The notes under the pieces were generated by a model. It was not told where the DNA came from, did no database searches, and saw nothing but the letters and a program-made list of their open reading frames with translations. 35,451 nucleotides of DNA from assembly GCA_947581835.1 (NCBI GenBank), contig CANPVV010000009.1, positions 1 through 35,451 of the forward strand, in the 5' to 3' direction. The DNA comes from an uncultured Bacilli bacterium (GTDB taxonomy: Bacteria > Bacillota_I > Bacilli_A > RF39 > UBA660). This document shows positions 27,363-32,882 of this stretch, one piece after another. The number at the start of each line of letters is the position of its first letter. Position 1 is the first letter of the stretch. A program made the translations under genes and the position numbers.

Positions 27363-27485
27363 TTTATTTCCTCCTTATTACTACCTAAAATTATTTGTTA
27401 AAATAAGCATATTATTAGCCCAATTAACTAGCATCAACACTGTTGACACATAACCCAATACTTATTCTTTATTAAACTCATTATA

Positions 27486-27513
27486 ACCATTTTGCTGACC
27501 TCGGCAAAATGGT
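27486..27513. repeat. 10-bp perfect inverted repeat in the pheS-pheT intergenic region
   Basis: ACCATTTTGC-8 nt-GCAAAATGGT, directly followed by TATAAT on the minus strand. Confidence 0.85.
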
Positions 27514-27518
27514 CAATA

Positions 27519-28526
27519 TTACTTCATATCAAAATTCTTTAAATACCGTATATCCCCACTATTTAAAACTCTTATATCACTAATCTTATATTTCATCATT
27601 GCAAGTCTAGTTAAACCAATACCAAAAGCAAAACCATTATATACTTCTGGATCAATTCCTCCAGCTCTTAAAACATTCGGGTGAACCATACCTCCAGGAA
27701 TTAACTCAATCCAACCACTATTCTTACAAGTTGGACAACCCTTTCCTCCACATATTAAACAACTACAATCAAGTTCATAACTTGGTTCTGTAAATGGGAA
27801 AAAACCAGGTCTAAGTCTTACCTCAACCTCTTTATGAAATACCTCTCTTAAAACACATTTCATAACATACATTAAATTTTCAATTGATATATCTTTATCA
27901 ATAACCATACCCTCTAATTGAAAGAAAGTATTTTCATGACTAGCATCTACGTCTTCATTTCTAAAAGTTCTGCCTGGTGCACATATTCTAAGTGGTGCTC
28001 CATACTTTTCCATCGCATGAATTTGATTATCACTAGTTTGAGTTCTAAGAAGCATTCCATTATCTAAATAATAAGTATCTTGCATATCTCTAGCTGGATG
28101 ATCTTTAGGAATATTAAGTGCCTCAAAATTATAATACTCTGATTCCATTTCTGGTCCACTTACAATAGTAAATCCCATTCTCTTAAGTATATCTGTAACC
28201 TCTTTAGCTACAATTGTAACTGGGTGTAAAGAACCATTATTAATCTCATAATCAAGAGTATCATCAAAGCTAATATTTATATTATTTTCTATTTCTTCTA
28301 ACTTTTTATTAATTAATTCTTCTAATTCTTTCTTAGTATTATTAATTAAACTTCCATATTTTCTCTTATCTTCAACACTCATATCTTTTAAAGAAACAAG
28401 TAAATCTTGAATTTCACTTTTCTTACCTACATATTCACCCTTTAAATTAAGTACAAGAGCCTCTTTATCAACACTACTTAATTTACTAATTAACTCTTCT
28501 TTAATCTTTAATATCTTTTCTTCCAT
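27519..28526 (-). CDS. pheS: Phenylalanyl-tRNA synthetase alpha subunit
   Basis: FEALNIPKDHPARDMQDTYYL, RTQTSDNQIHAM, FTEPSYELDCSC, GFAFGIGLTRLAMMKY. Confidence 0.97.
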   Translation of the reverse strand: MEEKILKIKEELISKLSSVDKEALVLNLKGEYVGKKSEIQDLLVSLKDMSVEDKRKYGSLINNTKKELEELINKKLEEIENNINISFDDTLDYEINNGSLHPVTIVAKEVTDILKRMGFTIVSGPEMESEYYNFEALNIPKDHPARDMQDTYYLDNGMLLRTQTSDNQIHAMEKYGAPLRICAPGRTFRNEDVDASHENTFFQLEGMVIDKDISIENLMYVMKCVLREVFHKEVEVRLRPGFFPFTEPSYELDCSCLICGGKGCPTCKNSGWIELIPGGMVHPNVLRAGGIDPEVYNGFAFGIGLTRLAMMKYKISDIRVLNSGDIRYLKNFDMK

Positions 28527-28528
28527 AA

Positions 28529-29545
28529 CTATTCCTCCAAATTATTTAATCTTTTTTCTATATCTTCTATACTAGGTAATTTATTTTCTAAAAACTCTGG
28601 TATTTCTGATAATATTTTATATTCACTAACTCCAATCGGCTTATTTATATCTTTTAAAGCCAACTCAGCTGTAATTTTCTTTTTATTTTTACACAATAAT
28701 ATTCCAAATGTTGGATTATCATCATCACTTTTAATATATTCATCTACCGCACTTAAATAAAAATTAAGTTTACCAGCATATTCTGGTTTAAAATCTGTAG
28801 TTTTTAACTCTACTACTACATAACATTTAACTTTTAAATTATAAAATAATAAATCTAAATAATAATCTTCATCATCTATCTCTAAATGATACTCTCTTCC
28901 TACAAAAGCAAAACCATTACCAAATTCTAACAATAATTTAGTTATATTATTTATTAATTCTTTTTCTAATTCTACTTCTTTTAAACTTCCTTTATCAGTA
29001 ATAAAATCAAATATATATGGATCTTTTAATAATTCTTTAACTTGCTCTTTATGTGGTGATACTAAAGTCTTATCAAAATTATTAGTTTTATTTTCTAATA
29101 AAGCTTGTCTTTCATATAATTTACTTTCAATTTGGTGTATTATTATTGGTCTCGACCAATCATTGTCAATAGCCTCTTTAATATACCAATTTCTCTGTTC
29201 ACTATTATTCACTCTATCCATAATAGTAGTTATAGAAGTCCATGGTAATTTTGCAACATGATGCTGCAAAAATTCATCATCACTAAATTCTTTAGCAAAT
29301 TTCTGCATATATCTTAAATTTCTAGCAGACATACCTTTTAAAGTTGGAAATTCTACTTTTAAATCTTTAGCTAAATTATCTATAAAAGAAGTACCCCAAT
29401 TATTATTTTCTAATAATATTAAACCAATATTATAATACATTTTAATTAATTCTTTATTAGTACTTAAAATAACTCTATTTCTAGTTGTTATTAAAGTATT
29501 TTTAATATTACTTAATACTTCAAAATATTTATTATTATCTATCAT
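28529..29545 (-). CDS. YhcG/DUF1016-family protein with C-terminal PDDEXK nuclease domain
   Basis: YyNIGLILLENNNWGTSFIDNLAKDLKVEFPTLKGMSARNLRYMQKFAKEF; nuclease core YYLDLLFYNLKVKCYVVVELKTTDFKPEYAGKLNFYLSAVD. Confidence 0.93.
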   Translation of the reverse strand: MIDNNKYFEVLSNIKNTLITTRNRVILSTNKELIKMYYNIGLILLENNNWGTSFIDNLAKDLKVEFPTLKGMSARNLRYMQKFAKEFSDDEFLQHHVAKLPWTSITTIMDRVNNSEQRNWYIKEAIDNDWSRPIIIHQIESKLYERQALLENKTNNFDKTLVSPHKEQVKELLKDPYIFDFITDKGSLKEVELEKELINNITKLLLEFGNGFAFVGREYHLEIDDEDYYLDLLFYNLKVKCYVVVELKTTDFKPEYAGKLNFYLSAVDEYIKSDDDNPTFGILLCKNKKKITAELALKDINKPIGVSEYKILSEIPEFLENKLPSIEDIEKRLNNLEE

Positions 29546-29561
29546 ACTTCCTCCATATAAA

Positions 29562-29728
29562 AAAGTCTATCTATTGGGACGAATAAATCGCGGTACCACC
29601 CAACTTCCAGACTTCTAGCACTCTTTCGTTTATAGCACGACATACTATTAAAACTCCTAAGCTGAATTTTTTAAGTTTATTTATCTTTAAGTACTCCCAG
29701 CCATGATACTTAATCTCTCTTTAAGAAT
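29562..29728 (-). promoter_or_regulatory. T-box riboswitch, Phe specifier (UUC)
   Basis: T-box AGTTGGGTGGTACCGCG; basal Stem I AUUCUUAA/UUAGGAGU with UUC-A on the 3' side of the specifier loop (29666-29664); UGGU matches a tRNA ACCA end; terminator TTGGG...CCCAA...AGACTTTTTT. Confidence 0.93.
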
Positions 29729-29769
29729 ATAAACTAATACTAAAAACTTAATCAACGTTTACAAGATTT

Positions 29770-29798
29770 ATTCTAACAAAAAAAGGAGTAAATTGCAA
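29770..29798 (-). promoter_or_regulatory. Promoter of the T-box/yhcG-like/pheS transcript
   Basis: TTGCAA, 17-nt spacer, TAGAAT on the minus strand, about 40 nt before Stem I. Confidence 0.65.
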
Positions 29799-29932: not shown

Positions 29933-29966
29933 CTTTCGTAGCATCACTGTAGTGAAACTACGAAAG
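29933..29966. repeat. Hairpin overlapping the stop codon of the 29944 ORF
   Basis: CTTTCGTAG-CA-TCAC-TGTA-GTGA-AA-CTACGAAAG. Confidence 0.8.
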
Positions 29967-31377
29967 GATTACCTTTTGAACCATCTGCACTAGTATCGCT
30001 TTTAAATGGTGTACCAGCTTTGAGGTTTATTACTGGGCGCACACCAATGTTAGTGCCAGTCACGCGCCAGCGATTGAGGTAGCCAGTACTATCCACAGAG
30101 AACACCTGAGCATCCGCCGCACAATACGGAGACATCGTCCAGTAATATTGACCAGTATACAAGTAATATGTACTATTACTATAAGATGAACCATAACCAG
30201 ATCCTGCAAACATTACTTCATCTGCTGTAATTAATCCTACAGGCACCGGTAACGAATGATTTCCTTTACTACTATTAGCACTTGTATATAAGTCTTCTGT
30301 CTGTGGACATTTAAAAGACGGCCTTTTATCTGTATATATCCTTACATATCCACCATAATATGTATAGCTTGATCCCCAACCATATTCTTTCTTATTAATA
30401 TTGCCACCAGAACCACTTGCATAAGGGGTTCTATCTCCACAAAAACCAGCATCTTCATCTATGTATTGTTTAACTGTCGTAGGAAATTCTGCACCATTAT
30501 ACCAAGTGACTATTTGCTTCAATATATTACTATTAGTAGAATTAGCGTGAGTAGCTTTATATGCTTCATCGTCTCCCGTACCTTTAGTTTGAGGTTTTCC
30601 ATACATATAACCTACATAAGCATTATCATTATAAGAATCATTAAACGTTATACCGGTTGCTATCATAGTACCAGTTCCGCTAACCGCTGCACTTCCTTTA
30701 CCACTATAGATTAATCTTATTGAGCCATTTCCGTTTATTCTTACTATTCGCCAATAAGTCTTATCTATCAGAACCCAATTTTTTTCTGCTGTACCTCTAA
30801 AATAGTAAGTTTCTCCATCGTCATCATACCCTTTACACAATAATGTTCCTGGCTCTGTACTTGGACTCGTAATACCTGATTTCGCTTGACCTGTAGATTG
30901 GTCGACTTCTGGGCATTTACTTGCATCTTCAGTTACAGTCAAACTACCATCTTTATACAAATCAGCCAATGTATCTTTCGCAGTAGCTTTCCCATCTAAA
31001 TAAACCTTACACCTAGTTCCTCTCTCATCTATTCCTATATATAAACCATTTTCATCATATTTAATCGCATCAGTTATTTTATCATTACTACCCTTTTTAA
31101 GACAATAACTCATACTTTCATTTACTGTATAACTTCCTTCTGGTACTTCTTCTACATATCTATAATCTGTCTCTCCCTTATCTTTAACATATATTCCTAA
31201 AACTGTTAAATCTGGTAATTTATAATCTATAGTATCTTGTACTAATTTAGCATTAGTAGTTACTTTATATTTAGCTTTAGTTATATTAAGTACTATTGCT
31301 AATACTATAACTAAAAATATACTTACAATTAAAAAACCTTTCTTTAAATTATTCTTCTTTAAAGTTTCTAGTTTCAT
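29944..31377 (-). CDS. Membrane-anchored surface protein; C-terminus resembles DGR-type/DUF6273-like target domains
   Basis: N-terminal TM GFLIVSIFLVIVLAIVLNI; C-terminus YWRIVRINGNGSIRLIY...YWTMSPYCAADAQVFSVDSTGYLNRWRVTGTNIGVRPVINLKAG. Confidence 0.75.
   Translation of the reverse strand: MKLETLKKNNLKKGFLIVSIFLVIVLAIVLNITKAKYKVTTNAKLVQDTIDYKLPDLTVLGIYVKDKGETDYRYVEEVPEGSYTVNESMSYCLKKGSNDKITDAIKYDENGLYIGIDERGTRCKVYLDGKATAKDTLADLYKDGSLTVTEDASKCPEVDQSTGQAKSGITSPSTEPGTLLCKGYDDDGETYYFRGTAEKNWVLIDKTYWRIVRINGNGSIRLIYSGKGSAAVSGTGTMIATGITFNDSYNDNAYVGYMYGKPQTKGTGDDEAYKATHANSTNSNILKQIVTWYNGAEFPTTVKQYIDEDAGFCGDRTPYASGSGGNINKKEYGWGSSYTYYGGYVRIYTDKRPSFKCPQTEDLYTSANSSKGNHSLPVPVGLITADEVMFAGSGYGSSYSNSTYYLYTGQYYWTMSPYCAADAQVFSVDSTGYLNRWRVTGTNIGVRPVINLKAGTPFKSDTSADGSKGNPFVVSLQ
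30031..30105 (-). repeat. Putative variable repeat (VR) in the 3' end of the 29944-31377 CDS
   Basis: Aligns with 33013-33090: 60/75 aligned columns identical plus a 3-nt gap. 12/15 substitutions are at adenines of the other copy (minus strand). Confidence 0.65.
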
Positions 31378-31570: not shown

Positions 31571-32773
31571 TTAACTAATCATACTACTTATTGGAATAAC
31601 TTTATATTTACTTGTTAAATCAACTAAATTTACTGAATTACAAATAACTCCTCCACTACCTATATTATTTAATTTATCTAATTTTCTAAAAGAACTAATC
31701 ATACTTATATCTATTTTATTCTTATATTTAATTTCATAAAGATAATATATATTATCATAATCTTTAACTATTAAATCAATTTCATATCCATCTTTATCTC
31801 TATAAAACATAAAACTATTATTTAACCCATAATTATCATTTATTTTAATTAATTCTGATATTATATAGTTTTCATATAAGAAACCTAAATTAGTATAGTT
31901 TTCTAATGCTTTAATTGTATTTAAACCACACAAATAAGTACATATTCCACTATCCATAAATATAATCTTAGGAGAACTTGTAATTCTTTTTAATTCTTCT
32001 TTTCTTAAAGGATAAATTAATTTAATAATACCTGTAGCTTCTAATACACTTATCCATGATTTTATTGTTTTAACGTCTTTACCTGTATCTTTCGCTATAG
32101 AACTATAATTTAATATCATACATGCCCTAGAAGCAATTGAAACTAAAAATACATAAAAAGCATTTAAATCTTCTATCTGTTTTAATTCTCTTATATCTCT
32201 CTCTAAATATAAATTAATATAACTTTTAAAATAATATTCTCTTTTCATATCTTGTAAAACAAAACCTGGCATACCCCCATTTAAAATATTTTTTAAAATA
32301 ACAGTTTTATCAATATATTCTTTAGTAGTTAACAAATCAAAAGAAACAGGTAAATACTTTGATTTTACAATCTCTCTATAAGCAAAAGAATTCATCTCTA
32401 AAACTCCCATCCTACCTGCCAAAGTTTCACTAACCCCCTTCATTAATTCTATTTTTTGAGAACCAGTTATCCAAAAAAGTCCATTTTCTTTTGAATTATC
32501 ACATATAATTTTAATATAACTCATAAGCTTTGGAGCATACTGAATTTCATCAATAATTATAGGAGGTTTATAAATATTAAAAAACTCTTCTGGATTACTT
32601 AAAGCTTTAGCTCTAACGTTTAAATCATCTAAAGTAACATAATTTCTCTTAGCTTCTTTAATACTTAATAAAAAAGTAGTCTTCCCCACCTGTCTTGGTC
32701 CTGTAAGTAATACTGCTTTAAACATATTACTATACTCTAAAAAAGCTTCTTTAATATTCCTACTATAACTCAT
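31571..32773 (-). CDS. DUF4143-type AAA ATPase
   Basis: VLLTGPRQVGKTTFLLSIKEAKRNYVTLDD, PPIIIDEIQYAPKLMSYIK, GSQKIELMKGVSETLAGRMGVLEM, C-terminal EIDLIVKDYDNIYYLYEIKYK. Start moved from 32845 to MSYSRN at 32773 because the track's extension translates repeat DNA. Confidence 0.9.
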   Translation of the reverse strand: MSYSRNIKEAFLEYSNMFKAVLLTGPRQVGKTTFLLSIKEAKRNYVTLDDLNVRAKALSNPEEFFNIYKPPIIIDEIQYAPKLMSYIKIICDNSKENGLFWITGSQKIELMKGVSETLAGRMGVLEMNSFAYREIVKSKYLPVSFDLLTTKEYIDKTVILKNILNGGMPGFVLQDMKREYYFKSYINLYLERDIRELKQIEDLNAFYVFLVSIASRACMILNYSSIAKDTGKDVKTIKSWISVLEATGIIKLIYPLRKEELKRITSSPKIIFMDSGICTYLCGLNTIKALENYTNLGFLYENYIISELIKINDNYGLNNSFMFYRDKDGYEIDLIVKDYDNIYYLYEIKYKNKIDISMISSFRKLDKLNNIGSGGVICNSVNLVDLTSKYKVIPISSMIS

Positions 32774-32815
32774 AAATATCACCAAACTAATATTATCATA
32801 AAATAACTTTTTTGT

Positions 32816-32882
32816 CAAATTTGGAATTAACTCCAAAAAAGTCAAAAAATGGCAAATTTGGAATTAACTCCATATTTGCCAT
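32816..32882. repeat. Two 20-bp direct repeats plus inverted repeat upstream of the DUF4143 ATPase
   Basis: CAAATTTGGAATTAACTCCA at 32816-32835 and 32853-32872; second copy flanked by ATGGCAAAT (32849-32857) and ATTTGCCAT (32874-32882). Confidence 0.9.

What the first reader, a model, noticed from the sequence alone, without database searches (positions are those of the whole stretch)
28529..29728. YhcG-type PDDEXK nuclease placed between a Phe T-box and pheS
The minus-strand T-box has specifier UUC, T-box AGTTGGGTGGTACCGCG and a competing terminator, so it should sense uncharged tRNA-Phe. The first gene after it is a DUF1016/YhcG-like nuclease, not pheS. The pheS RBS (TTTGGAGGAATAG) overlaps the nuclease stop codon, suggesting translational coupling. 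Phenylalanine starvation would then induce a nuclease together with PheRS. The usual T-box arrangement leads directly into the synthetase genes.
Basis: partly seen in the sequence, partly recalled or inferred. Interest (0 to 1): 0.75.

Follow-up and report, generated by a model that had tools for sequence, protein, structure and literature searches.

The report
Nuclease gene inserted into phenylalanine-sensing operon
In one gut bacterium a probable anti-phage nuclease gene has landed precisely between a phenylalanine-sensing RNA switch and the enzyme genes that switch controls, so it is probably expressed with them, but comparison with over 120 relatives suggests a sporadic insertion into a position that often picks up extra genes rather than a purpose-built starvation response.

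Summary
On the minus strand there is a promoter, a Phe T-box (29572-29764, specifier UUC, competing terminator), an intact yhcG (28529-29545; DUF1016_N + YhcG_C, PADLOC candidate defence family PDC-S02), then pheS and pheT. The pheS Shine-Dalgarno (SD) sequence supplies the last codons of yhcG, and no promoter fits between the terminator and yhcG.

The proposed Phe-starvation nuclease regulon is not supported. Among 123 T-box-pheS loci from the genus (Candidatus Onthousia) and its family, yhcG occupies this place only here. The closest relative has an empty site that removing 1016 bp restores exactly, so the gene inserted at the pheS SD.

The position is a recurrent cargo slot. In 17 of 123 loci some gene lies between T-box and pheS: alpha/beta-hydrolase (9), DUF218 (2), metallo-beta-lactamase-fold, others. 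Another species carries an unrelated yhcG between pheS and pheT, and the window's own pheS-pheT spacer holds a relic of that yhcG type.

Best reading: repeated capture and loss of a mobile defence-candidate nuclease by a T-box operon. yhcG inherits tRNA-Phe-dependent transcription by position. A physiological benefit is possible but unshown.

The parts
29770..29798 (-). promoter-like TTGCAA-17-TAGAAT (extended -10 TG) upstream of the T-box leader
   Evidence: consensus scan; equivalent promoter in the leader of the closest relative G018
29572..29764 (-). Phe T-box leader (stem I with specifier UUC, antiterminator motif GGTGGTACCGCG)
   Evidence: RF00230 E 3.2e-15; specifier context conserved in the family; relatives' leaders score alike
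29555..29617 (-). competing intrinsic terminator (AAGTCT...TTGGG/CCCAA...AGACTTTTTT)
   Evidence: RNA fold -22.3 kcal/mol; arms co-vary with relatives
29548..29554 (-). left copy of GGAGGAA (ancestral pheS Shine-Dalgarno position, now serving yhcG)
   Evidence: compared with the empty site in G018
28529..29545 (-). yhcG: DUF1016_N + YhcG PDDEXK nuclease, PADLOC PDC-S02, 338 aa, intact
28532..28538 (-). right copy of GGAGGAA = pheS Shine-Dalgarno, encoding the last residues of yhcG
   Evidence: sequence; empty-site comparison
27519..28526 (-). pheS, phenylalanyl-tRNA synthetase alpha subunit
   Evidence: PF01409 E 1.4e-86
27363..27518 (-). pheS-pheT spacer with a 60-nt relic of a second, different yhcG type (85% identity to L062:6325-6384) and a 28-nt hairpin (27486-27513)
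   Evidence: blastn E 7e-13 against all fetched loci, same place and strand; hairpin unique in the genome
25038..27362 (-). pheT, phenylalanyl-tRNA synthetase beta subunit
   Evidence: PF03483, PF03484, PF01588, PF03147

Best explanation
A single-gene, mobile, defence-candidate nuclease (YhcG/PDC-S02) inserted fairly recently into the T-box-controlled pheST operon, exactly at the pheS Shine-Dalgarno sequence. The insertion duplicated GGAGGAA (or recombined on SD microhomology), so both yhcG and pheS keep a ribosome-binding site and the tail and stop codon of yhcG are host sequence (shown by empty-site comparison; the recombination route is inferred). The gene brought no promoter, so it is transcribed from the T-box promoter: when tRNA-Phe is uncharged the antiterminator forms and yhcG-pheS-pheT are read together (inferred from anatomy and known T-box mechanism). 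The nuclease most likely serves anti-phage or anti-mobile-DNA defence, as proposed for its family (inferred). Phe control is inherited by position, in an operon whose intergenic sites repeatedly gain and lose cargo genes, yhcG among them.
For: Empty site in the closest relative G018: ATTTTTTATATGGAGGAATAGTTATGGAAGAA; the window has the same letters on both sides of a 1016-bp insert. T-box-pheS gap is 43-69 nt in most of 123 loci; yhcG is there only in this genome. Other cargo at the same place in 16 further loci. Independent yhcG (34% identical) between pheS and pheT in G030, and a 60-nt relic of that type in the window's own pheS-pheT spacer. YhcG homologues: 32 of 36 genus genomes, up to 18 per genome, many broken, beside core operons or in tandem, beside a type I-like RM gene and a relaxase in G032 and just after a relaxase in L080, in Wolbachia phage WO and 469 plasmids. 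PDC-S02 E 4e-129. Intact, dN/dS to the two closest intact homologues 0.12-0.17. No gap for a promoter between terminator and start codon.
Against: The repeat of GGAGGAA is what any two SD sequences would show, so it is weak evidence for a particular insertion mechanism. No strain-level genomes of the same species were available, so age and fixation are uncertain; pheS synonymous divergence to G018 is already about 0.5. dS between yhcG homologues is similar to that of pheS, so recent between-species transfer of this copy is not shown. A promoter-like site inside yhcG (29142-29169, 11 of 12 matches) could feed pheS independently. Defence function of PDC-S02 is only a candidate assignment.
Confidence: 0.78

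Rival explanations
1. Evolved Phe-starvation response: uncharged tRNA-Phe switches on the nuclease together with PheRS because the nuclease is useful in starvation (for example growth arrest, DNA scavenging or stress-linked genome change).
For: T-box and terminator look intact, yhcG is first in the transcript, the stop/SD overlap with pheS is tight, and a yhcG has entered the same operon at least twice in the genus.
Against: 1 of 123 T-box-pheS loci; empty in the closest relative; many unrelated genes occupy the same place in relatives; the older yhcG in this operon decayed; the protein has 17 Phe residues by count of the translation, so its own translation would suffer in Phe starvation.
Confidence: 0.07
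2. Infection sensing: phage infection that lowers charged tRNA-Phe (anticodon nucleases, rapid translation) trips the T-box and induces a defence nuclease, so that the T-box acts as a phage sensor.
For: PDC-S02 defence-candidate family; T-box control by position; two different yhcG genes in one T-box operon of the genus.
Against: No data on defence activity or tRNA depletion; same sporadic distribution; most cargo in this place is not defence-like.
Confidence: 0.07
3. Neutral or slightly harmful selfish insertion: yhcG is a homing-like selfish nuclease gene that spreads into SD sites of operons and gives no benefit.
For: Up to 18 copies per genome, many broken, at many different loci; ORF-precise insertion; relic of an older copy.
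Against: Purifying selection between homologues; no shared target sequence beyond an SD was found; some homologues sit in RM/relaxase clusters like defence cargo.
Confidence: 0.08

Closest known systems
T-box leader (RF00230) controlling pheST
   Same: UUC specifier, GGTGGTACCGCG antiterminator motif, competing terminator, pheS and pheT downstream
   Different: a nuclease gene lies between leader and pheS; Rfam score is under the gathering line, as for the other Onthousia leaders tested
YhcG / DUF1016 (PF06250, COG4804) = PADLOC PDC-S02
   Same: full-length two-domain protein with conserved D231 and E246-L-K248; single gene, phage- and plasmid-borne homologues
   Different: placed inside a T-box aminoacyl-tRNA synthetase operon; no such T-box context seen near its 80 closest homologues by motif search
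T-box / alpha-beta-hydrolase / pheS arrangement in related genera (9 of 91 T-box-bearing loci outside the genus)
   Same: cargo gene between Phe T-box and pheS, cargo 3' end over the pheS SD
   Different: cargo is a hydrolase found in several genera; the yhcG case is a single-species insertion
G030 pheS-yhcG-pheT
   Same: YhcG gene inside the same T-box operon, C-terminus encoded by the downstream SD
   Different: different YhcG subfamily (34% identity) and between pheS and pheT

Membership tests
T-box riboswitch (RF00230) | specifier codon in stem I matching the downstream synthetase | tested here: met
   UUC in the GAA-UUC-A/G context conserved across the family
T-box riboswitch (RF00230) | T-box antiterminator bulge UGGN able to pair with the tRNA 3' end | tested here: met
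   GGGUGGUACCGCG present; aligned to the model
T-box riboswitch (RF00230) | mutually exclusive terminator | tested here: met
   -22.3 kcal/mol hairpin with U run; co-varying arms
T-box riboswitch (RF00230) | Rfam gathering score 93 | tested here: inconclusive
   70.1 bits, E 3.2e-15, so below the line; genus leaders 60-83, outgroup leaders 94-113
T-box riboswitch (RF00230) | tRNA-Phe-dependent antitermination | not testable with these tools
   needs in vitro transcription or a reporter
YhcG / PDC-S02 | DUF1016_N plus YhcG_C domains | tested here: met
   PDC-S02 E 4e-129 over residues 4-335
YhcG / PDC-S02 | PD-(D/E)XK catalytic residues | tested here: met
   D231 and E246-L-K248 invariant in the alignment; motif E-D-ExK described for YhcG in PMC1189080
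YhcG / PDC-S02 | nuclease activity or phage protection | not testable with these tools
   none here
Conserved Phe-starvation regulon member | arrangement conserved in related genomes | tested here: not met
   1 of 123 T-box-pheS loci

The most novel reading that the evidence does not exclude
The Phe T-box has been co-opted as a sensor for a defence nuclease: a drop in charged tRNA-Phe, in starvation or during phage attack, switches on YhcG together with PheRS, and the repeated entry of YhcG genes into this operon reflects selection for that control.
Probability: 0.1. Interest if true: 0.78.

Novelty: new variant of a known kind. Interest (0 to 1): 0.42.

Why it matters
It shows a riboswitch-controlled housekeeping operon acting as a landing site for accessory genes. 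Insertion at a Shine-Dalgarno sequence gives the newcomer ready-made regulation while the essential genes keep their ribosome-binding site, and the same operon records one intact and one decayed nuclease insertion. If the T-box control of the nuclease proved functional, it would link tRNA charging to defence.

Tried and rejected
(1) Chance or misannotation of the T-box: rejected. (2) Decayed T-box after the insertion: rejected, it scores like leaders without an insert. (3) Specifier AUU (Ile) by frame shift in the loop: rejected by conservation of GAA-UUC-A/G in the family. (4) Own promoter of yhcG between terminator and start: no room. (5) T-box motif near the 80 closest YhcG homologues in named genomes: none found by a motif search (a loose pattern, not a covariance model). 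(6) Hairpin in the pheS-pheT spacer as a dispersed repeat: only one copy in the genome. (7) Relics of YhcG in the G017, G026 and G023 spacers: only weak matches, not claimed. (8) dN/dS with L078: discarded, because that copy appears to have an in-frame stop that breaks the codon alignment. (10) NCBIfam gave no model match; PDB by sequence gave nothing convincing.

Full report
What is there. On the minus strand, from 29.8 kb down, the window holds a promoter (TTGCAA-17-TAGAAT), a T-box leader (29572-29764, E 3.2e-15), a terminator ending in six T, an intact 338-aa YhcG, pheS and pheT. The T-box scores 70 bits, under Rfam's gathering line of 93, but leaders of genus relatives score 60-83, and leaders at the same place in more distant genera score 94-113. 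So the leader is a divergent lineage of a true T-box and has not decayed since the insertion. The specifier UUC is supported by the family-wide GAA-UUC-A/G context, and the terminator arms change together between species (window GTCT/AGAC, G018 TCCT/AGGA). The fold of the 3' part gives the terminator at -22.3 kcal/mol.

The nuclease. YhcG carries both Pfam domains and conserved D231 and E246-L-K248. It falls in PADLOC's candidate defence family PDC-S02 with E 4e-129. Homologues are in 32 of 36 genomes of the genus, up to 18 copies each, many interrupted, often beside core operons or as tandem overlapping genes. Homologues are also in Wolbachia phage WO and in 469 plasmids. In G032 the 78% homologue is followed by a type I-like restriction-modification protein and a relaxase gene, and in L080 a homologue directly follows a relaxase gene. 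The genus is Candidatus Onthousia, Bacilli; it is named from the 78% homologue L078 and is therefore an inference for the window itself.

The insertion. The closest relative, G018 (pheS 92% identical over the part held), has T-box, then TTTTTTATATGGAGGAATAGTTATGGAAGAA, with no gene between. The window has TTTTTTATATGGAGGAA, then GT-yhcG, then GGAGGAATAGTTATGGAAGAA. Removing 1016 bp gives back the empty site letter for letter on both sides, although pheS itself differs by 11% in nucleotides. The pheS Shine-Dalgarno sequence is thus present twice, once for each gene, and the end of YhcG (..LEE, stop TAG) is host leader sequence. Homologues end differently (..LEDDSE..LEMDY). Whether this is a target duplication or recombination on SD microhomology cannot be told, because any two SD sequences look alike.

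How usual it is. pheS loci were read in 34 genomes of the genus and in 100 genomes of other genera of the family. A T-box was found before pheS in 32 and 91 of them. The T-box-pheS distance is mostly 43-69 nt. In 17 of these 123 loci a gene lies between: YhcG (this genome), DUF218 (2 Onthousia species), alpha/beta-hydrolase (9), a metallo-beta-lactamase-fold protein, a dUTPase-like protein (by eye), a short unknown protein (2), and an unknown set in L197. As here, the hydrolase C-terminus often runs over the pheS SD. Between pheS and pheT, species of Onthousia carry MazG (G003), a membrane protein (G007, G033) or another YhcG (G030). The window's own 156-nt pheS-pheT spacer contains 60 nt at 85% identity to the middle of the G030 yhcG, in the same place and strand (E 7e-13 against all fetched loci). 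So this operon has held a YhcG twice in this lineage: one lost, one present.

Mechanism. There is no room for a promoter between the terminator U run (ending near 29555) and the yhcG start, so yhcG should be made only when the T-box reads through, that is when tRNA-Phe is uncharged. This step is inferred from anatomy and from established T-box biochemistry; no expression data were available. The yhcG stop and the pheS start are 2 nt apart, which makes translational coupling likely (inference). A promoter-like site inside yhcG (29142-29169) matches 11 of 12 positions, but the region as a whole has no more such sites than shuffled sequence (11 against 10.2).

Judgement. The anatomy is real and the nuclease is very probably co-regulated with PheRS. 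The distribution says that this is one episode in a history of gene capture by the pheST operon. dN/dS between homologues of 0.12-0.17 says that the protein family is maintained, but it does not show that the T-box control is. In the paper library, searches for T-box surveys and for YhcG/PDC-S02 gave no report of a nuclease behind a T-box; this is a limited search of open-access text.

Noticed in passing
window 27363-27518: The pheS-pheT spacer holds a relic of a second yhcG type and a unique 28-nt hairpin; the 229-nt spacer of G026 (L004) holds a similar hairpin.
   Followed up: partly
L062:6018-7067 (G030:C38): An intact YhcG lies between pheS and pheT in another species; its last codons are the pheT SD and start region.
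   Followed up: yes
L200, L208, L209, L225, L232, L233, L236, L240, L260: An alpha/beta-hydrolase gene sits between the Phe T-box and pheS in several genera of the family; its role there is unknown.
   Followed up: partly
L022 (G003), pheS-pheT spacer: A MazG nucleotide pyrophosphohydrolase gene is inserted between pheS and pheT.
   Followed up: no
L158:3710-6477 (G006:C26); L162 (G014:C3): Two or three tandem YhcG genes overlap end to end by 4-8 bp beside core genes.
   Followed up: no
L159:5716-6627 (G000:C15); L164:3489-4511 (G016:C5): YhcG genes (intact in this genome, broken in G016) lie directly upstream of the rpsJ (S10) ribosomal protein operon.
   Followed up: no
window 29944-31377: A variable DUF6273-like putative surface protein lies upstream of the T-box; paralogues occupy similar places in many relatives, often near YhcG genes.
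   Followed up: no
window 31571-32845: AAA_14/DUF4143 ATPase gene next to the pheST region, a family often found as mobile cargo (from general knowledge).
   Followed up: no
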